Translations under genes and position numbers: made by a program | Virus record (IMG/VR): IMGVR_UViG_3300030107_008258 | Location: 1 to 64,000 of that record | Reading direction: 5' to 3' (one strand) | DNA length: 64,000 bases | From: a virus | Notes under the pieces: model-generated | Told to the model about the DNA's origin: nothing | The model's input: only the letters and a program-made list of their open reading frames with translations | The model's database searches: none | Shown: in pieces, positions 18,670 to 55,200 of the stretch | How the letters are laid out: each line of letters opens with the position of its first letter | How positions within the stretch are numbered: position 1 is the stretch's first letter

Positions 18670-19722
18670 TCAGGGGGAAAAAGCTCGTTTTTTCTCTATT
18701 TCAAGGTCCTTCTCCACCATTCTTTTCACTAAATCGTTAAAAGAATACTTAGGTTTCCATCCTAACTCTTGACGGATAGGATTAGAGTCTCCATAAAGTA
18801 AATCTACCTCTGCTGGACGATAAAACTCTTCGTTTATTTCGGCTAAAATTTTATTTTCTTGAAAAATTCTAAATTTTTCATTTAATCCTTCACCGCTCCA
18901 TAAACCAGCGATCCCTGCTTCTTGAAAAGCTAGCGACACAAATTCTTTGACACTATGAGTTTCATTGCTAGACAGCACATATTCTTTCGGCTCCTCTTGG
19001 TTAAGCATTAGCCAAACTGCTCTTACGAAATCTTCAGAGTCCGACCAGTCCCTCTTGGCATTTACGTTACCAAGCTGAAGTGGCCGGAACTCCTTACCTT
19101 GGTCGATTGCCGCCTTGATAGCAGCAACTCCCTTAGTAATTTTTCTTGTTACGAATTCCTCTCCTCTCCTTATTCCTTCGTGATTAAAAAGAATACTATG
19201 AACCGCAAAAAGATTGTAAGATTCCCGATAAACTTTTACAAGGTGGCGGGATGCAGCTTTAGAAGCTCCGTAGGGGCTTCGTGGCTTAATTGGGTGATTA
19301 ATGTCCTGTGGGCTGTAATCAACATTTCCTAACTCCTCGGAGCTTCCGGCGCTATAAAATCGACAATCAGACTTGAATTTTCTAATCGCTTCCAAACATC
19401 GAATTACTCCTAATGTGTTGACATCGAAAACCTGAAGCGGCATGTCCCAGCTGCAACCTACAAAAGAATTAGCGCCAAAATTAATGAAGTAATCTGGCTT
19501 AATTTCTTTTACTAATTTATCAATGGAAATGTCATCCGTTAAATCTCCATAGACTAATTTAAAATTGGGATGGTTTTCAAATTCTTTTACGTTACCTTTG
19601 TTTACGTTAGAAGTTCGACGCATCATACCGTAAATTTTTATATCCTCTTGAAGAGATAAAAGGTATTCGGCCATATTCGCACCGTCTTGACCCAGTATGC
19701 CTGTTATAATTACATTTTTCAT
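18670..19722 (-). CDS. gmd: GDP-mannose 4,6-dehydratase
   Basis: 350 residues, normal family length. It is an extended short-chain dehydrogenase with NAD(P)-binding GILGQDGANMAEYLL, catalytic YSAGSSEELG and PYGASKAA (the Tyr and Lys of YxxxK), LFNHEGIRRGEEFVTRKIT, and LGNVNAKRDWSDSEDFVRA. FYRPAEVDLLYGD is the Gmd substrate motif. It converts GDP-mannose to GDP-4-keto-6-deoxymannose, the branch point for GDP-fucose, colitose, perosamine and related sugars. The downstream genes at 23727, 24661 and 30898 fit that branch. It is the last gene of the 20-kb operon. Confidence 0.93.
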   Translation of the reverse strand: MKNVIITGILGQDGANMAEYLLSLQEDIKIYGMMRRTSNVNKGNVKEFENHPNFKLVYGDLTDDISIDKLVKEIKPDYFINFGANSFVGCSWDMPLQVFDVNTLGVIRCLEAIRKFKSDCRFYSAGSSEELGNVDYSPQDINHPIKPRSPYGASKAASRHLVKVYRESYNLFAVHSILFNHEGIRRGEEFVTRKITKGVAAIKAAIDQGKEFRPLQLGNVNAKRDWSDSEDFVRAVWLMLNQEEPKEYVLSSNETHSVKEFVSLAFQEAGIAGLWSGEGLNEKFRIFQENKILAEINEEFYRPAEVDLLYGDSNPIRQELGWKPKYSFNDLVKRMVEKDLEIEKKRAFSP

Positions 19723-20510
19723 TTGTGCTTAGAGTTATTTTTATAATAAAATTCACTTTTTAGAGACGCCATTATTAAAACATCGCATTCACTTGTTCCA
19801 ACAATGTCATGAGTCTTCTTAATAAGATTTAAAATCTCACTATATTTTGAGTCTTCTTTACGATAATGAAGTTCTAGCAAAATAAATTTAAAAATAGAAA
19901 GATCTTTATCTATTAAGAAATCGTATTCAGCACCCTCTATATCGCACTTTAATAATTCTATGGGGTCTTGACACTTTTCACAATAATATTTTTCCCTTAT
20001 TTGGTCATAGGTAATTGTGGGTACATGAGCTACGAGATTTTTTTCTACATGGTTGTCCGATAGGTATATACTGCAGTCTCCGGGGCAATTATTTAAATGG
20101 TTATAGATGGGAACCTTAATTCCTTCAGTTCCATGACACGCTTTATTTTCAAAAACACAACTTTGGTATAAATTATAATTGTAAGTTCCATCGATAGGGT
20201 TGGGGAGGTCTGTCTTTTTTTCGTCCTTAAGGAATTTCCGGAACTTTCGTTCTTTTTGCTGCTCAGCGATATTGTACTCAGATACGTTTTGTAGTGCGTG
20301 TTTAGAAAAGGAAAGGTTTAGAGGATTTGCTTCATAGCAAATGTATCTATCAAATCGTGCATTAAAAACAGTAGGAAAACCTCCAACACAACTTCCGCAA
20401 TCTATAACGGTGCCTCCCCTACAATTTACAGGAAGAATCCAAGAATCTTTTATTTCATCGCATACCTCATTAAACCATTTACAGTAAAACTCTATTTGCT
20501 CGGCTTTCAT
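19719..20510 (-). CDS. FkbM-family methyltransferase
   Basis: 263 residues. The SAM-binding fold shows motif I VIDCGSCVGGFPTVF, YEANPLNL (motif II acidic), then LKCDIEGAEYDFL (motif IV) and FILLELHY. FkbM-type enzymes O-methylate sugars or other hydroxylated metabolites. The middle section (~85-165) carries cysteines (CHGTEG, NCPGDC, CEKCQD) not found in most relatives, which may bind metal. It overlaps gmd by 4 nt. Methylating a deoxysugar or surface glycan is the likely role; the acceptor is unknown. Confidence 0.75.
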   Translation of the reverse strand: MKAEQIEFYCKWFNEVCDEIKDSWILPVNCRGGTVIDCGSCVGGFPTVFNARFDRYICYEANPLNLSFSKHALQNVSEYNIAEQQKERKFRKFLKDEKKTDLPNPIDGTYNYNLYQSCVFENKACHGTEGIKVPIYNHLNNCPGDCSIYLSDNHVEKNLVAHVPTITYDQIREKYYCEKCQDPIELLKCDIEGAEYDFLIDKDLSIFKFILLELHYRKEDSKYSEILNLIKKTHDIVGTSECDVLIMASLKSEFYYKNNSKHK

Positions 20511-20511
20511 T

Positions 20512-21468
20512 TTAATTTTTAAAAATACAAGTAGTTCCTTCGATATCTAATTTAAAATTAAGCGCTCTACCGTTGAATTTTTTTTTAATTTTTTTATTAG
20601 TATCGGGGTCGGAAATACTCAAAAGAAACCCGCTCCCTCCTGCTCCAAGCAGCTTAACTGACTTGGACCCAAGGCTTCTAAGAGATGCTTCTATTGAGTC
20701 TATTTCTTCAGTGGAAATATGCGGAGAAATGTTTTTTTTCTCCAGCCATGAATCATTGATTAATGACATTATAGAATCCAGATCCTCCCTGCAAAAAAAG
20801 GAGTAAGCTTCCCGGGCGTATTTCAGAATGCGCGATTTATTTTGACTTTTATGTTTATGAGAATCTGCAGCCGCAGTCCCCTTCCTTTCGGACTTTACAT
20901 ATATTAAAGATATACAACTAAGAAAATAATCTTTAAATTCTTGTGTGAGAGGCAACGGCTTGACGTGAAAGTCTCCATTTTTAAATATCTCTATACTATT
21001 GAACCCTCCGTAAGAAGCTGCTATTTGATCCTGAATGCCGCCGCTTTCTTGAAGAATTTTTCTTTCAACATTTATAGCGCTTTGAGCTATTTGTTTTTTT
21101 GATAAAAAAGTCCCGTGTAGGTAATTTAATGCCGAAATAAGTGCGCAACAACACGAAGACGATCCGCCCAAACCAGTTCTCGCTGGAATGTCTGAAAAAA
21201 AATTAACGTCAAGAGTACGTTTGGAGACGTTATATTTTTTAATAGTTTCCCTTAGGAGAGGATTGGAAAGTTTATTTATGTCAGTTAAAACCTGACTAGA
21301 AATTGCGTGCTCTCCTGCTATTATCTCGGGCCTAAATCGGGCGGATATGTAATTATATTTATCTATGGTAGAGCTGATGATAAAAGATCCGTGACGGCTA
21401 TAAAAATCCTCGTAATCAGAAGAACCTCCAAAAAAACTAACTCTGCATGGAGACCTTACTATTACCAT
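20512..21468 (-). CDS. GHMP kinase, D-glycero-D-manno-heptose 7-phosphate kinase-like
   Basis: 318 residues. GHMP signatures: PCRVSFFGGSSDYEDF at the start, ATP-binding loop RTGLGGSSSCCCALISAL, GGIQDQIAASYGG, and the C-terminal motif VKLLGAGGSGFLLSI. The GGSSDYxxF start and GIQDQIAAxYGG are typical of HddA and related sugar kinases. These phosphorylate the anomeric or C1 position before nucleotide transfer. With the nucleotidyltransferase at 1244 it could feed a nucleotide-heptose pathway. A fucose-kinase-like specificity is an alternative. Confidence 0.78.
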   Translation of the reverse strand: MVIVRSPCRVSFFGGSSDYEDFYSRHGSFIISSTIDKYNYISARFRPEIIAGEHAISSQVLTDINKLSNPLLRETIKKYNVSKRTLDVNFFSDIPARTGLGGSSSCCCALISALNYLHGTFLSKKQIAQSAINVERKILQESGGIQDQIAASYGGFNSIEIFKNGDFHVKPLPLTQEFKDYFLSCISLIYVKSERKGTAAADSHKHKSQNKSRILKYAREAYSFFCREDLDSIMSLINDSWLEKKNISPHISTEEIDSIEASLRSLGSKSVKLLGAGGSGFLLSISDPDTNKKIKKKFNGRALNFKLDIEGTTCIFKN

Positions 21469-22484
21469 TATAAATTAGTATGAAGAGTATTTATATTCGG
21501 CACTATGCTATATGCTTTAATTAATTCTTTTATTCCTTCATCCAAGCTAAATTGAGGGCTCCATCCTGTTCCCTCTATCTTGTCGTTGCTAACGATATAA
21601 TTTCTCTTGTCAGGGTCCGAGGCGTAATCACTGGTCTTAATGTCAAACTCTGGGATGTAATTTTGAATTTTTCTACATAACTCTAATTTGGATAAATTAG
21701 CAGCAGAAAGACCGACATTATAAGCCTGCCCCAAAGGGTCAAAATATCTAATATCTCCCTCTATCGAGCCACCCATGTCGACAGAAGGGGCGCTCCGGTA
21801 AAAGTAAGAACATTTACCGTCGGGTGATGGAACGCCTATCATGTGCGTCATTGCGCTTACAACATCTCTAATGTGTATATAATTTCTTTTAAAATTATGT
21901 TCAAAAAGAACAATATACCTATCCGTAATAGCTTTTAATGTAAAATCATTTACGAGAAGGTCTTTTCTGAATCTGTAAGAAGTTCCGAACACGGTAGCTA
22001 ACCTAAGAGAAGTATGCCCCCTACTTAAAATATAATTTTCCGCTTCGCATTTAGTTTTGCCATAAACAGAAATTGGATTAAGCGGCGTTTCTTCAGTACA
22101 GATAGAATCACTTACTCCATAACCACTGTTTGTATTTGGGTAAATTATTCTTTGATCAGTGGAATTCTCAACAATAAATTTGACATGATCGCAGTTTACT
22201 TGTTGAGCCAACGAAGGGTTCTTATCACAAGCTGGAAATCCTACTATGGCCGCCAAAGGGAAAACAACGTTTACTTTATCTAATAAAGTTTTAAGAAGTT
22301 TCTGGTCTCGAACATCTCCGTAAACAAATTCAAATTTAGGAGAATGGCAAAATGCTATACAACTCTCCTGCTTGTATAACAAATTGTCTAAAACATAAAC
22401 TTTTTGCACGTAAGAACTCTCAAGGAGTTTTTCTGTTAGAACCGTGCCAATGTACCCCGCGCCGCCTGTTATTAGTACCTTCAT
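21468..22484 (-). CDS. NAD-dependent epimerase/dehydratase
   Basis: 338 residues, extended SDR family. NAD-binding GGAGYIGTVLTEKLL, YGDVRD, FPLAAIVGFPAC, then NTNSGYG with the Ser/Thr site and YGKTK with the catalytic Tyr and Lys. The stretch ~210-235 carries the substrate-binding RDVV region. It modifies a nucleotide sugar by epimerisation, dehydration or reduction; the specific sugar cannot be named. It overlaps the kinase gene by one base. Confidence 0.78.
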   Translation of the reverse strand: MKVLITGGAGYIGTVLTEKLLESSYVQKVYVLDNLLYKQESCIAFCHSPKFEFVYGDVRDQKLLKTLLDKVNVVFPLAAIVGFPACDKNPSLAQQVNCDHVKFIVENSTDQRIIYPNTNSGYGVSDSICTEETPLNPISVYGKTKCEAENYILSRGHTSLRLATVFGTSYRFRKDLLVNDFTLKAITDRYIVLFEHNFKRNYIHIRDVVSAMTHMIGVPSPDGKCSYFYRSAPSVDMGGSIEGDIRYFDPLGQAYNVGLSAANLSKLELCRKIQNYIPEFDIKTSDYASDPDKRNYIVSNDKIEGTGWSPQFSLDEGIKELIKAYSIVPNINTLHTNL

Positions 22485-22485
22485 T

Positions 22486-22794
22486 TTAAAATTTTATTTT
22501 TCCTCTTATTATATCAAAAAGCATCATCCAATCACAAATTTTTGCTTTAATTGGATGTTTAAAAGCTGCTGGAGTGTTCTTTTCAAAGAAAAAGTGACCC
22601 GACCAAGCGAAAGGGTAAACTACAAAAGGAGAAATTGTTAATAAAAATAAAAAATAAGAATTATAACTAAGGCCAAGGTAGGTTATCCCACAGATAAACA
22701 AAATAGTAAAAATCTGCCCAGCTACATGAAATCTTCTGCAAATTTTATTTTTATGCAGGGAAAGGTAATGAGTATAGTATTCTTTAAGAGTCAT
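22486..22794 (-). CDS. Mpo1-like (DUF962) membrane protein
   Basis: 102 residues. Two or three hydrophobic stretches (IFTILFICGITYLGL and YFLFLLTISPFVVYPFAW) indicate an integral membrane protein. The family pattern is visible: YYTHYLSLHKNKICRRFHVAG at the start, then AWSGHFFFEKNTPAAFKHP and ICDWMMLFD. These His residues match the conserved set of the yeast Mpo1/DUF962 family, an Fe-dependent dioxygenase of 2-hydroxy fatty acids. In a phage surface-sugar operon it may alter lipid or lipopolysaccharide, or anchor the pathway at the membrane. It overlaps the next gene by 11 nt. Confidence 0.75.
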   Translation of the reverse strand: MTLKEYYTHYLSLHKNKICRRFHVAGQIFTILFICGITYLGLSYNSYFLFLLTISPFVVYPFAWSGHFFFEKNTPAAFKHPIKAKICDWMMLFDIIRGKIKF

Positions 22795-23737
22795 TTTTTA
22801 AAATTAATTTTATCCCTTCCTCTAAAGAAGTTTTAGCTTCCCAATTTATAACTTCTTCTGCAGTGGTGCAGTCACAATATTGGCAAAGAATGTCGGGGTC
22901 GATGGGGTTGTCCTTTATTTTTAACTCTATCTCAGGGTTGACGCAATTTTTAATAATCTGCGCTAAATCATAAATAGTTACAGGCTTTGGATAGCCTATG
23001 TTTAAAGGGTCTATGTAATCATTAGCGTCTAAAGCTTCTATCATTTTTAAGGTAGCTTCAACAGCGTCATCAATATAACAAAAAGCCCTTTTTTCCTGAC
23101 CCTCCGTCAATATAGTATATTCTATATCTGGATACTTTTTAGCTCTATCTATCAATACTGGAATTATTGAACCATTAGCTAAATCAGTAGATTGTCTTGG
23201 CCCATATATACCGTTATACCTAGCTATGGCGTACTTAAACTTTCCCTTGCAATAAGAAAGATATTTCTCGGAGCTTAGTTTATTCCAACCGTAAGAAAGG
23301 CTTGGGTCCGCCGGGTAAGCGTCTTCCTCTTTTAAGGGGTTAGCGTTAAGATTTGCCTGTAGAGATTTGGGATAAACATGAGAGCTACTAGCATAAAATA
23401 TTTTTTTTATGCCATAATCTTCAACAGCTTTAAAAACCCTATGGTCTATTTGGGTATTTTTAACTAGGACTTGAAGAGCATTGTCTTGGTAGAAATGATA
23501 GCTTCCAACAGAAGAGGCTAAATGTATTACTATGTCAACCCCTTTGAATATTCGACAATCAAAATCGGTGGACGATAAATCTCGATTAACGGTATGAGCT
23601 TTAGAGTTTAAATATTTCCCTCTTGAAAAATTATCTACAGCAATTACTTCATTATTGCCACAAAAGTAATCGAGTAGATGAGAGCCTATAAACCCCGCTG
23701 CGCCTGTTATTAGTATCTTCTTATTTTTAATATTCAC
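22784..23737 (-). CDS. NAD-dependent epimerase/dehydratase, GDP-sugar epimerase-like
   Basis: 317 residues, extended SDR. GAAGFIGSHLLDYF binds NAD; YASSSHVYP and SYGWNKLSSEKY give the catalytic Ser and YxxxK-like pair; ARYNGIYGPRQ and KRAFCYIDDAVEATLKM are typical of epimerases and dehydratases. It resembles GDP-mannose 3,5-epimerase and UDP-glucose epimerase relatives, so an epimerisation step on a GDP-linked sugar is a fair guess. It overlaps the fcl-like gene by 11 nt. Confidence 0.75.
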   Translation of the reverse strand: MNIKNKKILITGAAGFIGSHLLDYFCGNNEVIAVDNFSRGKYLNSKAHTVNRDLSSTDFDCRIFKGVDIVIHLASSVGSYHFYQDNALQVLVKNTQIDHRVFKAVEDYGIKKIFYASSSHVYPKSLQANLNANPLKEEDAYPADPSLSYGWNKLSSEKYLSYCKGKFKYAIARYNGIYGPRQSTDLANGSIIPVLIDRAKKYPDIEYTILTEGQEKRAFCYIDDAVEATLKMIEALDANDYIDPLNIGYPKPVTIYDLAQIIKNCVNPEIELKIKDNPIDPDILCQYCDCTTAEEVINWEAKTSLEEGIKLILKNDS

Positions 23738-24650
23738 TCTTGTACCAATCTACTGTCTTCTTCACTCCTTCAAGCAAGGAGGTCGAAGGAACCTCTCCAA
23801 TATCTTTGTAGAACTCAGACATATCATAATACCTTCTATTTTGACCATCTGGCCTAGAGCTATCCCACACTACTTTACCGTCAAAACCAGTTGCAGTAGA
23901 TATGGCTTCAATAAGCTGCTTAATAGTAGTCTCAACTCCTGTTCCTAAATTATAAGGACCGCGCAAATCTTTAACTTCACAGCATTGCAAGATAGCTTTA
24001 CACACATCTTCCACGTAAATAAACTCTCGTGAAGCCTTACCGGTCCCCCAAATTACTACTTCTTCTTTAGCTTCTATAAATTTTCTAACAAGAGCTGGTA
24101 CTACGTGAGATGTTTCGAGGTCAAAGTTGTCGTAAGGCCCATAAAGGTTTGCCGGAATTAGCATGGTAGAATCAAAACCATACTGATCTCTATAAGCCCA
24201 TGATTGAGTAATGAGATTTTTCTTGGCCATTGAATAGCCATAAGAGTTTTTATCAGGAAAGCCATTCCAAAAATCACACTCTTTAAATGGTATTGCTACA
24301 TCTGGATAACCGCATCCTGCCGCCAATCCGACAAACTTTTCCACATTATTCACATAGGCGCTATGAAGAGTATTAATTCCGGCGAGAGCGTTTTGGTAGA
24401 AAAAGTCTCCTAGTCTTGAATTATTTGCTGCTATCCCTCCGACAAGCCCGGCAAGGTGAATGACAATATCAATTTTATTAGAAGCAAAAAAAACTGAAGT
24501 CTCTTCTTGGTTTACTAGGTCTAACTCTTTTCTAGTTGGAGTGATAAGATCACAATCCAAATTTTTAATTAAAGGAAGAAGGTTTCGTCCTACAAAACCA
24601 TGGGCTCCTGTTACCAACACTTTTTTATTATTCCAGTATTCTTTATTCAT
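23727..24650 (-). CDS. fcl: GDP-L-fucose synthase or GDP-L-colitose synthase (Fcl/ColC-like)
   Basis: 307 residues, normal for Fcl. VLVTGAHGFVGRNLLP, RKELDLVNQE, IHLAGLVGGIAANN, GYSMAKKNL (YxxxK), NLYGPYDNFDLETSHVVPA, then IWGTGKASREFIYVED are near-diagnostic of the GDP-4-keto-6-deoxymannose 3,5-epimerase/4-reductase family. With gmd it would make GDP-L-fucose. ColC of the colitose pathway is a close relative acting on the 3-deoxy intermediate, and a ColD-like gene lies immediately upstream. The fucosyltransferase at 30898 favours fucose; ColD favours colitose; both may be made. Confidence 0.85.
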   Translation of the reverse strand: MNKEYWNNKKVLVTGAHGFVGRNLLPLIKNLDCDLITPTRKELDLVNQEETSVFFASNKIDIVIHLAGLVGGIAANNSRLGDFFYQNALAGINTLHSAYVNNVEKFVGLAAGCGYPDVAIPFKECDFWNGFPDKNSYGYSMAKKNLITQSWAYRDQYGFDSTMLIPANLYGPYDNFDLETSHVVPALVRKFIEAKEEVVIWGTGKASREFIYVEDVCKAILQCCEVKDLRGPYNLGTGVETTIKQLIEAISTATGFDGKVVWDSSRPDGQNRRYYDMSEFYKDIGEVPSTSLLEGVKKTVDWYKSEY

Positions 24651-24660
24651 TATATATATT

Positions 24661-25794
24661 TTATTTTACGCAAAGGGATAAGCTTTCTTTAAGAGCCTTA
24701 CAAATTCTATTTATATCTTCTTCGGTTAAATATTGATGACATCCAATGTGAAGACCATTGTCGCCCACCCATTCAGCTTCAGGAAAATCTCCTAATTTAT
24801 AACCCATATCAGAAAAAGCTAAGTGTTGCGTAGGTATACAGCCAAAATTCCTTTTCCAGTGAATTTTGTATTTATCCATAATGGTTCGAACTATTTTAAT
24901 GTCACTTTCTTTTTTACAAGTAACACTAAAACCATGGGGGCAATTAACATTACCGTCATCTTCTTCAGAAAACCAAGCTACGTTTTCAAATCCGGTACAA
25001 GCATTATGGAATATTTTTAATATTTCTCTTCTTTTATTAAAAGTATCCCAAAATGAAGATATTCCCTCAAGGCCAACTGAAGCCTCCATGTCATTCATTT
25101 TAGAGTTTATGCCTACTCGAGGATGGTCAAAAAATATAGAATTAAACAGTCTTCCGTGAGACCTCGTAGAAGAAAGAACATCAGCGGTGAAACTATCATT
25201 AGTAGAGACCATACCTCCTTCTCCACAAGAAACAATATGAGCTACATAATAACTGTAAACTGACATGTCTCCCCAGTGGCCAATATATTCACCTTTGTAT
25301 TTAGCGCCATGAGCTTCACAAGCATCTTCAATAACAATTAGATTGTGTTTTTTTGCGAGATCGCAAATAGCTTTCATTTCTGCGGGTCTCCCCATTGTGT
25401 GCACCACCATTATCGCTCTTGTCTTGTTCGTTATGGCTTCCTCTATTTTAGACTCATCTATGTTGAGGGTTTCTTTTTTTATATCTACAAATTTTGGTAC
25501 AAAGCCAGCAGCTCTTACAGCGTTAGAGGTAGCTATAAATGAAAGTGCTGGAACAATTATTTCATCTCCCCTTTTAGCTTTCTGAAGATCATATAGGGCT
25601 AGGCATGCATTTATACATGCATCCGTTCCGGAACTCATGGCTACATTTTCTTTGAATCCAAAAAGCTTACCCCACTCTTTCTCAAACTGTTTTACTTTTG
25701 GTCCATTAGAGGCCCAATTTGCATCACAAACATCCATGAGATTCTGCCGAGCAATTTCTCCTATCTTAAGTTCTCCAAATTCTATCCTTTTCAT
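24661..25794 (-). CDS. PLP-dependent 3-dehydratase of the ColD type (catalytic His)
   Basis: 377 residues from ATG 25794; an upstream in-frame codon at 25803 lies inside the previous gene. DegT/DnrJ/EryC1 fold: SSGTDACINACLAL, EIIVPALSFIATSNAV, IEDACEAHGA with the PLP-pairing Asp. At the site where aminotransferases hold the PLP Lys the sequence is YVAHIVSCGEGG, with H186. This Lys-to-His change marks ColD (His188) and E1 3-dehydratases, which remove the C3 hydroxyl instead of transferring an amine. Predicted substrate is GDP-4-keto-6-deoxymannose made by Gmd. Next step: Fcl/ColC-like gene at 23727, or the ThDP enzyme upstream. Confidence 0.85.
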   Translation of the reverse strand: MKRIEFGELKIGEIARQNLMDVCDANWASNGPKVKQFEKEWGKLFGFKENVAMSSGTDACINACLALYDLQKAKRGDEIIVPALSFIATSNAVRAAGFVPKFVDIKKETLNIDESKIEEAITNKTRAIMVVHTMGRPAEMKAICDLAKKHNLIVIEDACEAHGAKYKGEYIGHWGDMSVYSYYVAHIVSCGEGGMVSTNDSFTADVLSSTRSHGRLFNSIFFDHPRVGINSKMNDMEASVGLEGISSFWDTFNKRREILKIFHNACTGFENVAWFSEEDDGNVNCPHGFSVTCKKESDIKIVRTIMDKYKIHWKRNFGCIPTQHLAFSDMGYKLGDFPEAEWVGDNGLHIGCHQYLTEEDINRICKALKESLSLCVK

Positions 25795-25796
25795 AA

Positions 25797-26324
25797 CTAA
25801 CAAAAATCTCCATGTTCTATTATTAACGTTGAAACCCCATCTTCTCTATCAAGCGCTTTTTTATAAGCCGGAAAAACTTCTTCTGCATGAATTAACTCTA
25901 CGACATTTATAGAGTCGCACATATTTTTGAAAGCTTGCGTATAATTAGCTTTATGTTGGTGCCCCGGATCGAGAGGGTATTGTGATCCTACTACTGTTTT
26001 AGTAATTACTTTGGGTTTAGATTCCCCATCTGACATTAACGACCATTTATCTAAATGGTTTATCAATTGATTAGCCGCTAAGATAGCAAAGTTCATGCGA
26101 GGGTATAGAGATATAGGTATTTGCCCTCTTAATGCTAATCCTATACAAAATCCAGCTTGAAAGTCTTCTGCTACCGGCAGTTCAAGAAGTTTTTCACTGG
26201 GAAATTTACTTACCTGATGAGTGATTGCGGTTCCTTTGCAAGCGACAGCTTGACCAACAAAAATAGTCTCGGGATGATTACCTAAGTAATCCATTCCTTT
26301 ATATACTTCTTCTTTATAATTCAT
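25797..26324 (-). CDS. ThDP-dependent enzyme, beta (pyrimidine-binding) subunit
   Basis: 175 residues resembling the first half of 2-oxoacid dehydrogenase E1-beta or the Pyr domain of transketolases. TIFVGQAVACKGTAIT, then LPVAEDFQAGFCIGLALRG with the Glu that activates the cofactor aminopyrimidine, FAILAANQLINHLDKW, and GHQHKANYTQAFKNM. The usual C-terminal E1-beta domain is missing. It pairs with the alpha-like gene at 26326 and the ColD-like dehydratase at 24661. In yersiniose synthesis a ThDP enzyme adds a two-carbon branch to a 3,6-dideoxy-4-keto sugar. A similar branching step is an inference here. Confidence 0.72.
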   Translation of the reverse strand: MNYKEEVYKGMDYLGNHPETIFVGQAVACKGTAITHQVSKFPSEKLLELPVAEDFQAGFCIGLALRGQIPISLYPRMNFAILAANQLINHLDKWSLMSDGESKPKVITKTVVGSQYPLDPGHQHKANYTQAFKNMCDSINVVELIHAEEVFPAYKKALDREDGVSTLIIEHGDFC

Positions 26325-26325
26325 T

Positions 26326-26964
26326 TTAAAACTCTACGAATACCCCGGTCCCGGAATGAGGATAGGTAGTCTCGTAACTATAGTATATTATTTTGAAATT
26401 TTTACATGTGGCACTAAGCTCTTTATAAATCTGATACCATTTTTCCGTGCTTCCTTTCCAAGTTTCTTTCGTGTCCGTGCCTACTGACTTGTTATTATCT
26501 TCAATAACCCATGTAATAGGCAAATCATGATTTAAGGAGTATTTTATTGATTCGCTAGTAATACCTGTAAGAAAGCTCATGTCCCCTATAAAACAATATA
26601 CTCTATTATTTGTAAATGTGTATCGAGATTTTTTAAGATTCCAAGCCGTTCCCACCGCAATTGGACATGTTCCTGACACTATGGCGGAGCTGTAAAAATT
26701 ATGCTTCGGAAAATGAAGAGTAATAGATTTTCCAGCGAGGATCTTTTCTTTAATTTCTTGGCGAGGAATACCTTTTAGCAACGCGTGTAAATGACTGGCC
26801 CACGTAGAGAAAACGTAATCTTCTTTCTTAATGTTGTTATCTTGAAATATCGATATAAGTTGTTTTTCATTATTATTTCTTAAATGTACCGGAGCCTTAA
26901 TTATCCCAGACTCATAAATATCTGCTATTTCTTTTTCAAAATTTATTAAATCGTCTACTGTCAT
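26326..26964 (-). CDS. ThDP-dependent enzyme, alpha (diphosphate-binding) subunit
   Basis: 212 residues with the ThDP motif: GDMSFLTGITSESIKYSLNHD then VIEDNN, the GDG-(~28)-NN signature with Met in the third place. HFPKHNFYSSAIVSGTCPIAVGTAWNL resembles E1-alpha and transketolase N-terminal chains. It overlaps the radical SAM gene by 4 nt and precedes the beta-type subunit with a one-base gap, so the two form one heteromeric enzyme. The donor keto acid and acceptor are unknown; see the beta subunit for the branched-sugar hypothesis. Confidence 0.72.
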   Translation of the reverse strand: MTVDDLINFEKEIADIYESGIIKAPVHLRNNNEKQLISIFQDNNIKKEDYVFSTWASHLHALLKGIPRQEIKEKILAGKSITLHFPKHNFYSSAIVSGTCPIAVGTAWNLKKSRYTFTNNRVYCFIGDMSFLTGITSESIKYSLNHDLPITWVIEDNNKSVGTDTKETWKGSTEKWYQIYKELSATCKNFKIIYYSYETTYPHSGTGVFVEF

Positions 26965-28451
26965 TGTAATATCTTTCTTTTTAAGCGGATATTGTTCATA
27001 CTTTTAATATTTTCAATTGCCTTTTCACCAAATTTATTTTGTATCATATTTAAAAACCTAGGATTTTCAAACAATACTCTAAATGAATAATCTCGAAACT
27101 CTAGTACTTCTTTGGATTCTAAATTATATGTTTTACTAGGTATATGATCGTATGACAGGAACCCGTATTCTGAGTAATTTTCAGGTGTGTCCCATCCTTC
27201 TTTCTTGGCTTTTAAATATAAAGGGCTACCCGGCAGAGAGGTGGCAGAATAAATATTTGAATTCTCAGCATTTAACTCTAACGCTAAGTTAAGAGTCTCT
27301 TGCATTGTATCCCAATTGTCGTGACCTAGCCCAACAATGTAATTTGCACAAACATTAATACCTGCATTTTGAATCATTTTGAAAACATCGCGAATATTAA
27401 TGTCTTCGAATCTACCTTTTGTTATTTCCCTTCGTATTTCTTGATTTCCGGATTCAACCCCTAAAGCCAACCAATTAACTCCAGCTTTTTTTAATTTTTC
27501 AAGATATCTTGGTTTAACGGTATCTATTCGAGTATATGCCCAAATATTAAATTCGTATCCTCTTTCAATTATTAAATCACATAAAACCTCAAAGTGTTTT
27601 GGTTTTAATACCCACATTTCATCAGCAATTTTAATCTGTTTAACGCCTTGTTCAGCCAAATAATCTAATTGCTTGATTGTGAAGTAGGGGTCCCAATATC
27701 TAAATTTACTGAACGAAGAAGATGTTTTATGCGGGTCATTATCGTCTCTATTTATAATATTTATCATGCAGAATTCGCATTTATAGATACAACCCAGTGA
27801 GGTATATATGCTAGCGAATGGGCTTCTGTCCTCGTCAATATAATTAGCATGCCAACTACTTGTACGATATTTATCTAAAGAGGGCATTAAATCATAAGCA
27901 ACACCCGGCATATCTTTTTCTAATCGACTCTGTGGAACAACTTTACCAGCAGGGTTTAGGATGATCTGACCAAAACTGTCCCTATAAGCAATACCATTTA
28001 TCTTTTTTAAATCATTATTAGTTAAATTAGAAGATAACAGATCTATTAAAGAATAGACGCCTTCATTCGTTAAAACAATATCTATTTCTGTATGTTTTTC
28101 TAATGTAGATGTCGGTAATGCATTTACATGAGGCCCGACAAACGCAATTTTAGTTTCTGGTAATAATTCTCTTACTTCTTTTGCGGCTATTACAGCTCCA
28201 GTCATAGACGCTGTTGAAGCGTTAGGGTTTTGCCCGGTAACAACAAATAAAATTAACCTAGCACCACAGTTTTCTATATCTTTTATATTTGGCTCAATCT
28301 CCATATCGTGTATAGAGACACTTATACCTTTACATCTTACTGCATTCGCTAAAAGCCCTGCCCATATATTAGGTTCCTTAGCAGAAAAATTATCACTAAG
28401 TTTTTGATACAATTTTCGTGAAGCACTGGGAGCTATAATTAATACATCCAT
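26961..28451 (-). CDS. B12-binding-type radical SAM enzyme
   Basis: 496 residues. The N-terminal ~150 residues match a cobalamin-binding fold (LLANAVRCKGISVSIHDME, GARLILFVVTGQNPNAS, KIAFVGPHVNALP), although the DxHxxG cobalamin His motif is not obvious. The radical SAM core follows with CIYKCEFC, the Cx3Cx2C cluster site, then the TIM-barrel strands (IKIADEMWVL, FNIWAYTRID, WLALGVESGN, INVCANYIVGLG). Such enzymes methylate unactivated carbons or rearrange substrates. Lying upstream of ThDP, ColD and Fcl genes, it may C-methylate the sugar or an attached group. Substrate unknown. Confidence 0.8.
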   Translation of the reverse strand: MDVLIIAPSASRKLYQKLSDNFSAKEPNIWAGLLANAVRCKGISVSIHDMEIEPNIKDIENCGARLILFVVTGQNPNASTASMTGAVIAAKEVRELLPETKIAFVGPHVNALPTSTLEKHTEIDIVLTNEGVYSLIDLLSSNLTNNDLKKINGIAYRDSFGQIILNPAGKVVPQSRLEKDMPGVAYDLMPSLDKYRTSSWHANYIDEDRSPFASIYTSLGCIYKCEFCMINIINRDDNDPHKTSSSFSKFRYWDPYFTIKQLDYLAEQGVKQIKIADEMWVLKPKHFEVLCDLIIERGYEFNIWAYTRIDTVKPRYLEKLKKAGVNWLALGVESGNQEIRREITKGRFEDINIRDVFKMIQNAGINVCANYIVGLGHDNWDTMQETLNLALELNAENSNIYSATSLPGSPLYLKAKKEGWDTPENYSEYGFLSYDHIPSKTYNLESKEVLEFRDYSFRVLFENPRFLNMIQNKFGEKAIENIKSMNNIRLKRKILQ

Positions 28452-29452: not shown

Positions 29453-30898
29453 TTAAATTTTATTTTCTAAAACTATTAATGGTTGATACATCGTGGAATC
29501 ACCGTTGTTTATTTCCATGTCAAAAGAGGAGTCATTGAAGCCGTATTTATCTAAAGTCCTCCATCCCTCTATCATTTTAGGAAATCTTATCTTACCGTAA
29601 ACTCGATGCACGTTAAACCAAAGTGCGTCTTTACCTACCGGCAGAGCCAAAAACATAACTCCCTGCGGCTTTAAGATTTGTTTTATTTTCTTCATGGCTT
29701 CCAAATCTCCATTTGGATTAAGTGGATCACCATAACGACCTAAGCCATCGTGCTCGAAAGAGGAAATAGATAAACAAGCATCAAATTTGATATTTATTTT
29801 CTCATGTGGTTGAAAGTAGGAAATTTTTTCATGAAAAGATTTTCTTTTTGAATATTCTATTACTGAAACAGACTTGGCACCAAAAAACAAGCACATTATC
29901 TCATACCAAGGGTGAGCTGAACCCATCACGCAAACATCTTTATTTTTTATTGGATGCTCTTTAAAGGCTTCGTAAAGGTAAAAGTCAGTAGCTCCATAGT
30001 AATTATGTTGACCCATTGATATTCGCTGGAGTGAGTCTTCGCATACTTCTTTTGTATAATTTTTATCCATTGCCTCTTGGGCCTCGGAAGTAGAATCGTC
30101 TCGGTAAGAATACTTCACTGGGATACTGCCGCCCATAGAATAAGCATTAAGCATATCTTCAGGAATTTTATCTATTGGTTTCTGGTGTTTTTTTTCATCT
30201 CTGGCATAAATCATACCATAATTAATTCTTCTCTCAGGGACGATGTAATTGTTTAAAATTTTAATCAAAATATCTTTATTCAAATATTTCTTAGGCTGTT
30301 TTAAATAAGGATCGCCTTCTTCTGAATGTGTTAATTCTTCGGGCAAATTTGTCTCCTCAAAATAACCTATAATTCCAAACTCTTTATAACCTATATATTC
30401 TAATCTATTTAAAATGCCTATAAGACTTTCATAGTCCTCTTCAATCCATTCTAGGCAAATGTTCGGAACTGTTTTGCTTAATCCATTTACAACGGCTAAT
30501 TCATGCCCCTCTACATCTACTTTTATTAAGTCAGGTTCTCCATAATGTTCAATAAGCGAATCAAGTGTTGTTGTTTCAACTTTAATTGGGTTACTCCACA
30601 TCGCTGAGGAAGGCTGTAAAAATTTGCTACCTTTTGTAAATCTAGAGTTATTTATAAATTCTAAGGACGCTGTTGAGATTCCTGACTGTCTTTTTTCTAC
30701 GTAAAAATTAATCTCTTCTCCTCTTTTTTCAGAACAGGCTAAATTTAAAAGCTTTATTGAACGATGCCATTCCGGAGGGACAGAAGGTATTAAATTTGGA
30801 TTAGCTTCAACCGCGACCACTTCACAAGAAGGATACTTAAGTATACAAGCTCTTGAGAACTCTCCTACGTTAAATCCTATATCAAAAACTTTTTTCAT
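29453..30898 (-). CDS. FkbM methyltransferase fused to a DUF268-like domain
   Basis: 481 residues from ATG 30898, where TAATG joins it to the previous stop; a TTG at 30913 lies inside the previous gene. Residues 1-~175 are an FkbM methyltransferase (VFDIGFNVGEFSRACI, VEANPNL, LIKVDVEGHELAVVNGL). Residues ~300-480 resemble DUF268, itself methyltransferase-like: VCVMGSAHPWYE, KFDACLSISSFEHDGLGRYG, LEAMKKIKQILKPQGVMFLALP. Two linked activities could modify two positions of one glycan. DUF268 has no firm biochemical role known to me. Confidence 0.7.
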   Translation of the reverse strand: MKKVFDIGFNVGEFSRACILKYPSCEVVAVEANPNLIPSVPPEWHRSIKLLNLACSEKRGEEINFYVEKRQSGISTASLEFINNSRFTKGSKFLQPSSAMWSNPIKVETTTLDSLIEHYGEPDLIKVDVEGHELAVVNGLSKTVPNICLEWIEEDYESLIGILNRLEYIGYKEFGIIGYFEETNLPEELTHSEEGDPYLKQPKKYLNKDILIKILNNYIVPERRINYGMIYARDEKKHQKPIDKIPEDMLNAYSMGGSIPVKYSYRDDSTSEAQEAMDKNYTKEVCEDSLQRISMGQHNYYGATDFYLYEAFKEHPIKNKDVCVMGSAHPWYEIMCLFFGAKSVSVIEYSKRKSFHEKISYFQPHEKINIKFDACLSISSFEHDGLGRYGDPLNPNGDLEAMKKIKQILKPQGVMFLALPVGKDALWFNVHRVYGKIRFPKMIEGWRTLDKYGFNDSSFDMEINNGDSTMYQPLIVLENKI

Positions 30899-31755
30899 TA
30901 TAGTAAAATCCAATCTTTGGGGTAAAACATTTCGCGATGAGTATAATTTTTTATATCGGGATGGTATCTTAACGGAGCCACCCTTTTTGCATTAGAGTTT
31001 ATGTTTAAGTAGGCTGCCCACCATCCAAAACTACTCAAGTGCCCCAGTATATTATGATCACAACTTGAGATTAATTCAAAATCTTCCATAGTGGTTTTTT
31101 GAGAAGATATAGTATAATCTTCGGGACTCCATCCTTTAGATTCAAAAAAACTTTGGCACCATTTGACATCGTCTAAATTGTTATCACTGAACCTTTTGCC
31201 CCCAGTGAAAATAACATAGTGACAATCAGCGAACTCGCTTAAAGCCTTGTCTAAATAAGTTTCGTAACCTCCTCCTTTGTCATAGTGTGATATTAATGCA
31301 CCTTGAGAGGGGTCGGTACCGTCCGTGTTGTCTCCCCTCCTTAAATGGATGGATACTAGGTCTTTCTTGACTTTTGTTCTTATATCGTCTAGAAAAGTAG
31401 AGAGACGAGGCCCGCATTGTAGCTCTTTTTTTATAGAGTCTTCGAAATCTTTAAAATAAAAAGTACTTTGAAAAAACCCTCTTAAAAGAGTATCGTCGGG
31501 AATATCAAAAAAATTTTTATCTATCTTAAAGGGATCAAGTTCTTCATATAAAAAACGAGGAGATGACTCGCAACTCTCGAGGACATTAATGTTAAAATGT
31601 GGCAGCAGACATGGTTGACCGTGCCACTCATGAGAAGAAAGGCCGTCGACTACTAAATCTGTACCGCGATGCAAGGAGAGAGATCTGGCCGCAGCATATT
31701 GGAAAAGTTGATTACCTAATCTACCATAACTTCCTATATGGGGGAAAAATATCAT
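30898..31755 (-). CDS. Alpha-1,2-fucosyltransferase (GT11)
   Basis: 285 residues, normal for GT11. Signatures are YGRLGNQLFQYAAARSL at the start, VSIHLRRGD at ~137 (the HxRRGD donor motif) and LISSCDHNILGHLSSFGWWAAYLN near the C-terminus. GT11 enzymes move fucose, or occasionally colitose, from its GDP form to galactose-type residues. Its presence argues that Gmd and Fcl in this operon provide GDP-fucose or a close relative. It overlaps the aminotransferase-like gene upstream by 4 nt. Confidence 0.85.
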   Translation of the reverse strand: MIFFPHIGSYGRLGNQLFQYAAARSLSLHRGTDLVVDGLSSHEWHGQPCLLPHFNINVLESCESSPRFLYEELDPFKIDKNFFDIPDDTLLRGFFQSTFYFKDFEDSIKKELQCGPRLSTFLDDIRTKVKKDLVSIHLRRGDNTDGTDPSQGALISHYDKGGGYETYLDKALSEFADCHYVIFTGGKRFSDNNLDDVKWCQSFFESKGWSPEDYTISSQKTTMEDFELISSCDHNILGHLSSFGWWAAYLNINSNAKRVAPLRYHPDIKNYTHREMFYPKDWILL

Positions 31756-32354
31756 TTAAATAAGTTAAAAGTTCTTAAGTCTCTGTAAGGAGGATCTTCG
31801 ACTTGGTCTGGGGCGTGTTTAGGATAAGCCATAAGAAGCGTCAGCCCTCGGGCTGCTTGTTCGGGGGTCATATACATGTTCCACCCTCCATCTCCCAAAT
31901 CGTCATCTTGAAAAGGTACGCCTATTGTTCTTCCTTCGTACCTTAACTTCTTTATAGTTTCTACAGCTTTTTCATCATCTGTAAGTATCATTCCGCCCTT
32001 GCCTATTTTAAGCGGCTTCTTGTGGTGAAAAGATAAACACATATAAGAACCCGGTATATACATGCCTGAAGTTAACCTTTTTGCTGCATCGTAAATTGGA
32101 TGTGGTTTTAATTGGTAAATACCGCTCCATTCAATATCTTCGAATTCAACTCTAGCACCGGCCTGTAATATAGATTGAGGCGGTGATATATATGTACGAG
32201 AAGGTATTGTTACAGTAGAGCCTTGAACTTCGTAATACTTGCAGCAAAGAAAAATAGCGTCAGTGCAGCTGTCGCAAGCGATAGCATAAGGGGCACCGGT
32301 ATATTCAGCGATAGCTTCTTCAAACCATTGTACTATTTCGAAAGGATTTCTCAC
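31752..32354 (-). CDS. Half-length DegT/DnrJ/EryC1-like PLP protein
   Basis: 200 residues, about half the family length. The PLP fold is recognisable: YAIACDSCTDAIFLCC, VTIPSRTYISPPQSIL, YDAAKRL, and SFHHKKPLKIGKGGMILTDD with Lys residues around the Schiff-base position. The C-terminal small domain is missing, apart from a short tail. Short DegT-like proteins occur in marine phages, so this may be a functional minimal enzyme rather than a truncation. Likely sugar amino transfer; donor and sugar unknown. Confidence 0.7.
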   Translation of the reverse strand: MRNPFEIVQWFEEAIAEYTGAPYAIACDSCTDAIFLCCKYYEVQGSTVTIPSRTYISPPQSILQAGARVEFEDIEWSGIYQLKPHPIYDAAKRLTSGMYIPGSYMCLSFHHKKPLKIGKGGMILTDDEKAVETIKKLRYEGRTIGVPFQDDDLGDGGWNMYMTPEQAARGLTLLMAYPKHAPDQVEDPPYRDLRTFNLFK

Positions 32355-52265: not shown

Positions 52266-55200
52266 TTATAATTCTGGAGCGCTACTTACAACAGCCGTTG
52301 TCCCATCCGGAAACCTAGTTCTAGTTACTAAATAAACTACCCCACCAACAGTTTCTCTCTGCGTAAAGTTTCCTACCCTCGTAGAACTTTGCAAGTAGTC
52401 TCCTTCATCTGTGATATTAAATTCAACCACAGAAGCATCTAATATTACTTCAAATTTACCCGGCGAGTCATTACTTCCTCCCGACAATATCAAATTAGCG
52501 CTTCCTCGCGCTTCTATTCCTTCTGTGGGAACAGTAGCGGTTATTTTGTTATCTGAATTAATAGTAAAACTAGATTCTAAATAAGGGCCATTAGGGATCT
52601 GAAAAAATACTCCACTGACAGCAGTGAATCCTTCGCCTGTAACCTCTACAGAAGAACCCGTCACTCCACGGGTCGGACCAAACCCAGTAGCATTAACACG
52701 AGTCCCTTGAATTATGTAATTATCTGGAAAAAAGTTCGCTTGAGTCGCTAAAAATTCTTCTGAAGTTGAGCCTAAAAAATCATTAGTAAAGGTTCTAATA
52801 TTTTCCGTGTTAAAATTTTTAGAGTCCCACGGATTAAGCACAAAAAGTCTCCCTGTCCCTATAAAGCCGCTATCCAGCTGAAAGCTAAATTTATTATAAA
52901 ATAAATTATGAGAATCCACTGCTCCGTACCCTGTTGTATTTCCGCTTATTGGATAAAAATAAACTTCAGCTGTGTTATTTTTGTTTCCAGTTCCTGTTAT
53001 GCCTACCGCAAATTGACCTGAAGTAAAATTATAATTTGTGGAATAAGAATTTAACCCACTAACAGCAACACTCGTTCCTGACGCAACCGTATTTGAAGAA
53101 TTAAAACCCGTTACACCTGTAACCATAGCAAGAGGATTGTATCCGCTTTTGTAAAAAATTGAAGCGTTCGTATTTCCTCTTCCTGAAACTTGAATATTTC
53201 CCTCCGTAATACCCGTAGGTAAGTCAACTGTGATAGAATGCTCCCCTAAAGAAGTAACTGAATTGGTTAGATTCTGTGCAGTAATATATCCCCCTGTTGG
53301 ATAAGGAAAATTTACATTCAACCCTGTAAGATTTTGACCACTTACTGTAACTGTTTGCCCCATCCCCGCATAATTACTAAAGCCTGTAATATCAGTCACG
53401 TTAATACTAAAAGGAGTAACGCTTTTCCTATTTTTAAAATCTCTTGTTTCAAATATACCGCTTCCGCTATTAATCCCTCTAGGAACAGTAAAAGAAGCTT
53501 CATAAGGGTTCTTAAGATTAAACTGATTTACCGAAATCGTACCTCCGTCTCCCGAAAATAAAACCCCTGTTACTAAATTAATCCTTTCTCCAGTTATAGA
53601 TATAATATCTCCTCCTTTAAAAACTTGGTCCTCGTTAAAGGGAGGGTTTATATTTCCATTGCCCAAATAAAAACCACTAATAGAAGGTTTAGGCGCGCTT
53701 ACTCCCAATACTCCAGTACTGTCAATCGCCCCTCCACTTGTTTCCACATTAATATAGTCACTAACAATATTATTCGGAATAACCATTTCGATCCCAGTTG
53801 TCGAACTTTGGTTAAAATCATCAACTATATAGCTTCCCACTTTCAATCCACTAGGTTTTACGGTTTCGAAATATCCCGACAAAGTAATCGTATCGCCAAA
53901 CTCTCCACTTGCAGGAGAAAACCCGCTAAATATAGGCGCAGCTTTTACCCCTAAAACTCCGGTAAACAAGTCCACACCTCGTCGATTACGAGCTCTAATC
54001 TTGTATTTGTCTTCATTATTGAAGCTATTGGGATAATAGAAAACTACTTGCGTATTGTTCCCCCTATAACCACTTACCTCTATATCTCCTCTAAAATTGA
54101 CTGGAGCCACATTATTATTATGTAGAGTCAGGGAAGTCCCTGAGTGTAAACGGCTCCCATAAATGCAGCCAGTTGAACCCGGTAGAAATCCCGAACATGG
54201 ATGAATTACATCAATTTCAGGCATACCAATGTATCTAAATTGTGCGGTATCAGATCCAAACTTTCCAGATATAGAAACTGTATAGTCGTACCCTGTGGCT
54301 GGTGTTTCGCTACCGGCTATCTCTGGCACTTCAAACTGTACAATCTCTCCAGCTACTACTTGTGTTGGGGTAACGGAACTATCTGTCCCTACGTTCCCAA
54401 AATCAGTACCAGTAATTGCATAAAGATTAGTTCCCATTAACGTCACTATATCCCCTTTTATTCCGGATATGGGAGAAACACCTGTGATGCTAGGGGCGCC
54501 AATACCCGGTGTAAATTTTATTTCTGAAGGGTAAGTATTAGGGTAGCTTTTGGTAAAAACGCTAACCTCCTGCTCACTTATAAAATAATCGTTCCCCAGA
54601 GTATTTCCTTCACCCAAATTACCGGAAACATGAATATTCATACCCGTAGGTACTTTTACCTTTAAAACTCTATCATTTACTAGTTTTGCGTTTCCTGTCT
54701 GACCGCCTATTGAAACTAAATATTTATAATCTGCTGTTGGATCAGGTAAGTAAGTGTCAGAGCCCGAATAAAGAATATCATCGGTAAAATTTTCTCCCGA
54801 TATATCCATAATCTGCCCTACTTCTACATTATTTTTAACTCCCGTGACTAAAGCTAGAGGCTGAAAAGAAATTGAGGCCGGAGCGCTATACTTAATTCCG
54901 CTTTTTAGGGTTAAAACAGGAGAACCGGTTAGATTACCAGTTGGAACTTCTACCTGTATACCGGTAGAACTAGGACCGTCTAAAGCTGAGTTACCCCAAT
55001 AACCAGTTAACGCTATATTATTAATGCTTACCCCCACCACTCCCGATAAAGATAAGCCTTCAATAGTTAGTGTTTCTCCCGAAACTAATTGTCCCGAACT
55101 TAATCCAGTAACTTCAGGGATAGGTACAAATTCATTAACAGTAATCCCACTAGATTCACTAGTGCTTCCATTTAATCCGGTTCTTAATGAAGAAACTACT

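What the first reader, a model, noticed from the sequence alone, without database searches (positions are those of the whole stretch)
23727..28451. Possible branched 3,6-dideoxysugar pathway: Gmd, ColD-type dehydratase, two-subunit ThDP enzyme and radical SAM enzyme
The PLP enzyme at 24661 has His at the Lys position (H186; ColD His188), so it should make a 3-deoxy-4-keto GDP-sugar. Next to it lie alpha and beta halves of a ThDP enzyme and a B12-type radical SAM enzyme. In yersiniose synthesis a ThDP enzyme adds a two-carbon branch to a similar keto sugar. A phage-encoded branched or methylated deoxysugar would be new to my knowledge.
Basis: inference. Interest (0 to 1): 0.75.

Follow-up and report, generated by a model that had tools for sequence, protein, structure and literature searches.

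The report
Phage cassette for C4-branched deoxy-heptose
A phage carries, in one compact operon, a sugar-making gene set that is also found in many bacteria and other phages, and that most likely builds an unusual seven-carbon surface sugar with one hydroxyl removed and a two-carbon branch added, a combination for which I found no published pathway.

Summary
The PLP enzyme has His at the Lys position (H186; it aligns with ColD H188), and a two-subunit E1-type ThDP enzyme and a radical SAM enzyme lie next to it. The gene at 23727 is Fcl-like, not Gmd; Gmd lies at 18670-19722. The same cassette recurs in SAR11, Nitrospira, Verrucomicrobia and many phages. In 88 non-redundant ThDP loci with long flanks, a His-type (3-dehydratase) DegT lies within 9 kb in 81, a Cj1427-like SDR in 69, the radical SAM enzyme in 65 and HddA in 55. 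In 78 control phage sugar islands without ThDP the counts are 25, 0, 0 and 1. The operon SDR at 21468 is 48% identical to the chain I identify as Cj1427, the GDP-heptose 4-dehydrogenase. Best reading: GDP-heptose is oxidised at C4, deoxygenated at C3 and given a C2 branch from pyruvate at C4. The radical SAM step is unresolved (closest fold AprD4).

The parts
26961..28451 (-). radical SAM enzyme, 496 aa, with B12-binding-like N-terminal domain; closest fold AprD4 (1,2-diol dehydratase), then class B methylases
   Evidence: present in 65 of 88 ThDP loci and 0 of 78 controls
26326..26964 (-). TdpA (name used here): PP half of an E1-type ThDP enzyme, 212 aa; GDM...EDNN ThDP/Mg motif, invariant His27 and His58
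25797..26324 (-). TdpB (name used here): Pyr half of the ThDP enzyme, 175 aa; invariant Glu53 and His124; lacks the C-terminal domain of E1-beta
24661..25803 (-). DegT-family 3-dehydratase, Lys replaced by His (H186 from the internal ATG, H189 of the TTG ORF); no E1-type 4-Cys motif
23727..24650 (-). Fcl-like (GDP-fucose-synthase-like) SDR; keeps YxxxK and Cys109, Ser107->Ala, His179->Tyr; not Gmd
21468..22484 (-). Cj1427-like SDR, probable GDP-heptose 4-dehydrogenase; 48% identity over 301 residues of the 6vo6 chain
20512..21468 (-). HddA-like GHMP sugar kinase (heptose-7-phosphate 1-kinase family)
22784..23737 (-). further SDR of the operon, epimerase/reductase type, role not assigned
18670..19722 (-). 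Gmd-like NDP-sugar 4,6-dehydratase (350 bits against gmd cut-off 415); substrate GDP-mannose or GDP-heptose not decided

Best explanation
The operon 18670-28451 encodes most of a nucleotide-sugar pathway whose core is shared with many bacteria and phages. [quoted passage not shown] the Cj1427-like SDR oxidises C4; the His-type DegT enzyme removes the C3 hydroxyl, as ColD and the C. jejuni C3-dehydratase do; the E1-type ThDP pair decarboxylates pyruvate (donor inferred) and adds the two-carbon unit to the C4 ketone, giving a C4-branched 3-deoxy-heptose of nine carbons. The radical SAM enzyme and the Fcl-like and other SDRs then tailor the product. The AprD4-like fold, and the presence of the cassette in SAR11 genomes without detected B12 genes, favour a cobalamin-free diol dehydration over C-methylation. 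In the phage the sugar would be put on host surface glycan, for example to block superinfection. Shown here: gene identities, key residues, operon packing, conserved co-occurrence. Inferred: every reaction, the pyruvate donor, the C4 position and the role in infection.
For: H186 column, and one well-supported His-DegT clade holding window, E1-like and ColD sequences (92 rows, SH-aLRT 99). 119 of 119 DegTs within three genes of the ThDP pair are His, against 31 His / 10 Lys in phage islands without it and 14 Lys / 3 His elsewhere in the same bacterial genomes (one look-alike locus explained). Cj1427-like SDR: PDB 6vo6 at 3e-94, 319 bits, next hit 82 bits. Bacterial cassettes add HddC-like and HddA-like genes. 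Heptose markers in 80 of 88 loci, DegT-His in 81 of 88. Precedents: E1-type pairs add C2 branches to keto sugars (PMC12247030, PMC4425429, PMC4753412); Cj1427 plus a C3-dehydratase gave GDP-3-deoxy-4-keto-heptose in vitro (PMC10680097).
Against: Six long-flank loci have the ThDP pair and heptose genes but no His-DegT found within 9 kb. In the cultured cyanophages S-SM2 and P-TIM68 a fused ThDP protein lies with HldE-like genes and a gene annotated as phosphoheptose isomerase but without DegT, radical SAM or HddA, so the wider family may do something else with heptoses. Seven loci have His-DegT but no heptose marker. The window also has a Gmd-like 4,6-dehydratase, which would compete with the 4-dehydrogenase. 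No NTP_transferase was found in the phage record, so GDP-heptose must come from the host. The ThDP subunits are much shorter than Pau11/Pau12 (212/175 vs 325/345 aa). No activity was measured.
Confidence: 0.5

Rival explanations
1. One reading: Gmd makes GDP-4-keto-6-deoxymannose, the DegT enzyme makes the 3,6-dideoxy-4-keto hexose, and the ThDP pair adds a C2 branch, giving a yersiniose-like GDP sugar.
For: A Gmd-like gene lies in the same operon (18670-19722). Some ThDP loci pair the enzyme with RmlB or Gmd and an E1-like His-DegT and no heptose gene (L012, L013, L173).
Against: The window carries the Cj1427-like SDR and the HddA-like kinase in the same operon. These are common partners and all but absent from control islands. 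Gmd-like 4,6-dehydratases of C. jejuni act on GDP-heptose (PMC10440746).
Confidence: 0.17
2. The ThDP pair acts early, as a small transketolase-like or DXP-synthase-like enzyme that builds a heptulose or other keto-sugar phosphate for GmhA/HldE/HddA; the 3-dehydratase is an independent later step.
For: Fused or paired relatives lie with HldE-like genes and an annotated or profile-detected phosphoheptose isomerase, without DegT, in S-SM2, P-TIM68, L011 and L020. Heptose markers accompany 80 of 88 loci.
Against: Profiles and fold match PDH E1 alpha/beta (1e-15, 2e-12), with DXS and transketolase only at 1e-5 to 1e-3. GmhA is usually absent from the cassette (16 of 88). Every adjacent DegT is a 3-dehydratase type, which this rival does not predict.
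Confidence: 0.18
3. The radical SAM enzyme and ThDP pair modify another position of the 3-deoxy heptose without forming a C4 tertiary alcohol; for example radical diol dehydration makes an aldehyde on the C6-C7 side chain and the C2 unit is added there.
For: AprD4, a sugar 1,2-diol dehydratase, is the closest fold to the radical SAM enzyme; the heptose side chain carries a 1,2-diol; the radical SAM enzyme is specific to ThDP loci (65 of 88 vs 0 of 78).
Against: 23 of 88 ThDP loci lack this radical SAM enzyme, most of them keeping the 3-dehydratase, so the ThDP step does not seem to depend on it. Foldseek scores of AprD4 and class B methylases are close.
Confidence: 0.1
4. The ThDP pair is an ordinary 2-oxoacid dehydrogenase E1 of central metabolism.
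For: Closest families are PDH E1 alpha and beta.
Against: Scores are far below equivalog cut-offs (67 vs 394 bits); subunits are about half-size without the E1-beta C-terminal domain; genes are locked into sugar operons in phages and bacteria.
Confidence: 0.02

Closest known systems
AviB1/AviB2, Pau11/Pau12, KbDH-alpha/beta (alphaKADH2 C2-branching enzymes of antibiotic sugars; PMC12247030, PMC4425429)
   Same: E1-type alpha/beta ThDP pair next to deoxysugar genes; proposed or shown to add a C2 unit from pyruvate to a keto sugar
   Different: Known cases are in antibiotic clusters with subunits of about 325-345 aa; here about half-size subunits, coupled to a 3-dehydratase and GDP-heptose genes, in sugar islands of bacteria and phages
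Yersiniose pathway (YerE with E1-type 3-dehydratase)
   Same: C3-dehydration, then ThDP branching at a 4-ketone, for a surface polysaccharide
   Different: YerE is a single TPP-dependent flavoprotein of the decarboxylase superfamily and the sugar is a CDP-hexose (PMC4753412, PMC12247030); here an E1-type pair and probably GDP-heptose
C. jejuni GDP-heptose pathways (HddA, HddC, Cj1427; C3-dehydratase of HS:5; PMC10440746, PMC10680097)
   Same: Same activation genes, Cj1427-like 4-dehydrogenase, ColD-type C3-dehydratase
   Different: No ThDP or radical SAM enzyme named in those pathways; GDP-3-deoxy-4-keto-heptose was made in vitro by mixing enzymes of different serotypes
ColD / colitose pathway
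   Same: His-for-Lys DegT enzyme, no Fe-S Cys motif, with Gmd and Fcl relatives nearby
   Different: No ThDP enzyme; the window DegT is in a separate early sub-clade and its closest PDB hits are Lys-type aminotransferases
AprD4 radical SAM diol dehydratase (apramycin)
   Same: Top Foldseek match (E 2.5e-22, TM 0.70), B12-like N-domain, acts on a sugar
   Different: 19% identity; not in the NCBIfam AprD4 family (53 vs cut-off 500 bits)

Membership tests
NDP-sugar 3-dehydratases (ColD, E1, SpnQ) | catalytic Lys replaced by His (PMC8987622) | tested here: met
   H186/H189 aligned with ColD H188
NDP-sugar 3-dehydratases (ColD, E1, SpnQ) | groups with known 3-dehydratases rather than Lys-type aminotransferases | tested here: met
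   One His clade of 92 rows with ColD, SH-aLRT 99, short-search tree
NDP-sugar 3-dehydratases, E1/SpnQ sub-type | four-Cys [2Fe-2S] motif | tested here: not met
   Loose 4-Cys pattern absent; so ColD-type turnover expected
NDP-sugar 3-dehydratases (ColD, E1, SpnQ) | removal of C3-OH from a 4-keto sugar | not testable with these tools
   needs enzyme assay
E1-type ThDP pair (alphaKADH2) | homology to E1 alpha and E1 beta with ThDP motif and catalytic Glu | tested here: met
E1-type ThDP pair (alphaKADH2) | full-size subunits like Pau11/Pau12 (325/345 aa) | tested here: not met
   212 and 175 aa; sizes of Pau11/12 from PMC4425429
AviB1/AviB2 C2-branching enzymes | groups with AviB1/AviB2 in a tree; adds C2 to a ketone | not tested
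   sequences not at hand; activity needs assay
YerE-like branching enzymes | single-chain ThDP flavoprotein of the decarboxylase superfamily | tested here: not met
   two separate E1-type halves
Gmd (for 23727-24650) | GDP-mannose 4,6-dehydratase family | tested here: not met
   best family is Fcl, NF047922
Fcl / GDP-fucose synthase (for 23727-24650) | Ser107, Cys109, Tyr136, Lys140, His179 of the E. coli enzyme | tested here: not met
   Cys, Tyr and Lys kept; Ser107->Ala, His179->Tyr; 252 bits vs cut-off 500
Cj1427 GDP-heptose 4-dehydrogenase (for 21468-22484) | full-length close relation to Cj1427, apart from other SDRs | tested here: met
   6vo6 319 bits vs next 82; 48% over 301 residues. 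That 6vo6 is Cj1427 is from memory
HddA heptose-7-phosphate kinase (for 20512-21468) | NCBIfam equivalog NF049969 | tested here: inconclusive
   best family but 110 bits vs cut-off 600
Radical SAM | CxxxCxxC cluster motif | tested here: met
   C221, C225, C228 invariant in 36 sequences
Cobalamin-dependent (class B) radical SAM methylase | cobalamin binding | tested here: inconclusive
   B12-binding domain 31.6 vs 32.1 bits; AprD4 and class B folds both match; SAR11 carriers lack MetH B12 and cobalamin adenosyltransferase matches
AprD4 diol dehydratase | NCBIfam NF033070 equivalog | tested here: not met
   53 vs cut-off 500 bits; fold similarity only

The most novel reading that the evidence does not exclude
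A widespread, undescribed surface-sugar pathway, shared by SAR11, Nitrospira, Verrucomicrobia, other bacteria and phages, in which GDP-heptose is oxidised at C4, deoxygenated at C3, given a C2 branch by a minimal E1-type ThDP enzyme, and further altered by a cobalamin-free radical SAM diol dehydratase, giving a new class of branched nine-carbon sugars that phages can install on their hosts.
Probability: 0.35. Interest if true: 0.82.

Novelty: new variant of a known kind. Interest (0 to 1): 0.62.

Why it matters
It turns a list of unlabelled genes into a three-enzyme in vitro test with a defined mass shift.

Tried and rejected
Looking for IMG/VR annotation by name failed. Promoter and terminator scans gave no more sites than shuffles. 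No tRNA in the window. phmmer of single TdpA against the PDB gave nothing; only the profile reached E1-alpha. The first gene-neighbour count used longest non-overlapping ORFs and missed genes in GC-rich loci; it was redone with six-frame profiles. I first suspected an independent Lys-to-His change in the window DegT because its best PDB hits are Lys-type enzymes; the tree put it inside the His clade. A pure transketolase reading was kept as a rival but disfavoured by profile scores. An apparent ThDP gene beside Lys-type DegTs in a SAR11 genome (L304) proved to be an ordinary 324-aa E1-alpha. Below-cut-off NrdJ hits in SAR11 were read as class I RNR from the sequence of one of them. The paper on the Cj1427 structure is not in the library. 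Paper searches for a pathway combining heptose, ThDP and radical SAM found none; the library lacks most subscription journals.
Full report
What is there. The window is part of a 144,418-base virus record with a phage DNA polymerase, replicative helicase, ribonucleotide reductase and tail protein and a terminase match at 118 kb. On the minus strand, 28451 down to 18670 is a run of eleven genes with gaps between -11 and +10 nt: radical SAM, TdpA, TdpB, DegT, Fcl-like, an SDR, an Mpo1-like protein, a Cj1427-like SDR, an HddA-like kinase, an FkbM-type methyltransferase and a Gmd-like dehydratase.

The PLP enzyme. It is a full-length DegT protein. At the PLP-lysine column it has His: residue 189 from the TTG start or 186 from the internal ATG. 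ColD fixes the column, because its wild-type chain reads SHHIAT while two other deposited chains read SNHIAT and SKHIAT (I read these as H188 mutants, in line with PMC8987622). The loss of Lys for His is the published mark of 3-dehydratases (PMC8987622). A four-Cys pattern of the E1 type is absent. In a 124-row tree all His rows but one long-branched bacterial row form one clade with ColD (SH-aLRT 99); the window row lies in an early sub-clade of eight.

The ThDP pair. TdpA matches E1_dh and PDH E1-alpha, TdpB matches only the Pyr domain. Profiles of the families reach PDH E1 alpha (1.4e-15) and beta (1.7e-12) with DXS and transketolase far behind. The TdpA model (pLDDT 93.6) matches PDH E1-alpha best. 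The ThDP/Mg motif region, His27 and His58 of TdpA and Glu53 and His124 of TdpB are invariant or nearly so. E1-type pairs are the known C2-branching enzymes of antibiotic sugars (alphaKADH2: AviB1/B2, Pau11/12, KbDH; PMC12247030, PMC4425429, PMC4753412). YerE is of another type.

The first gene. Ser107 and His179 of E. coli Fcl are Ala and Tyr here, shared with the 57% identical copy in L018. It may be a reductase without epimerase activity, for example for the branch ketone (inference).

Neighbourhoods. Relatives of TdpA/TdpB were taken from viral and bacterial collections without regard to other genes. In 176 loci, DegT, radical SAM, SDR and HddA families recur. Of 156 DegTs, 147 have His and 9 Lys; within three genes of the ThDP pair it is 119 to 0 (these counts include near-identical contigs and the window itself). 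With six-frame profiles, long flanks and removal of near-identical copies, 88 loci remain: His-DegT 81, Cj1427-like 69, radical SAM 65, HddA 55, any heptose marker 80.

Controls. Phage sugar islands chosen by Gmd or RmlB and lacking ThDP gave 31 His and 10 Lys DegTs, so His is common in phage islands. The difference from 119:0 is still large (Fisher p 5e-7, on non-independent rows). In 78 such islands of at least 14 kb there were no radical SAM relatives, no Cj1427-like SDR and one HddA. In eight bacterial genomes, full-length DegTs away from the cassette were 14 Lys and 3 His, those in it 6 of 6 His.

The substrate. The SDR at 21468-22484 matches 6vo6/6vo8 at 319 bits, next 82. I identify 6vo6 as Cj1427 from memory; PMC10680097 cites the structural paper on Cj1427, the C. 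jejuni GDP-heptose 4-dehydrogenase, and the library does not hold that paper. The window protein is 48% identical over 301 residues. Bacterial cassettes add an NTP transferase whose best family is HddC in one of two tested (second best in the other) and an HddA-like kinase. Cj1427 and a C3-dehydratase together made GDP-3-deoxy-4-keto-heptose in vitro (PMC10680097), which is the expected substrate for C4 branching here.

The radical SAM enzyme. The model (pLDDT 92.9) matches AprD4 best, then OxsB, MgmA and TsrM. Ten SAR11 genomes with the cassette show no MetH B12 domain and no cobalamin adenosyltransferase, and the one RNR sequence read looks class I, so a cobalamin-free reaction is likelier. 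This rests on partial genomes and is suggestive only.

Exceptions. Six long-flank loci have heptose genes and ThDP but no His-DegT within 9 kb; seven have His-DegT but no heptose marker. S-SM2 and P-TIM68 carry a fused ThDP protein with HldE-like genes and an annotated phosphoheptose isomerase, and no DegT. These keep the early-step rival alive.

Verdict. The combination is new as far as the held literature shows, built from known enzyme kinds.

Noticed in passing
window 31752-32354: A 200-aa half-length DegT-like protein; conserved at 61-72% identity at the same relative place in other phage islands (L002, L016, L101).
   Followed up: no
window 22486-22794: Mpo1-like (2-hydroxy fatty acid dioxygenase family) protein inside the sugar operon; 15 phage loci carry a relative near the cassette.
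   Followed up: no
window 29453-30898: Fusion of an FkbM-type methyltransferase with a DUF268 domain; in L018 the two halves are separate genes.
   Followed up: no
L177-L299 (control islands): His-type DegT homologues outnumber Lys-type (31 to 10) in phage sugar islands without a ThDP pair, in several sub-types, so 3-deoxysugar chemistry may be common in such phages.
   Followed up: partly
L330 8980-10188, L331 8968-10191: Cultured cyanophages S-SM2 and P-TIM68 have TdpA and TdpB fused in one protein, beside a zinc alcohol dehydrogenase and HldE-like genes and without a 3-dehydratase.
   Followed up: partly
L011 8862-9986, L020 6780-7811: A different, shorter, apparently radical SAM protein lies with the ThDP pair, HldE-like and GmhA-like genes.
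   Followed up: no
window 52266-55625: 1119-aa minus-strand ORF without any PHROG match.
   Followed up: no
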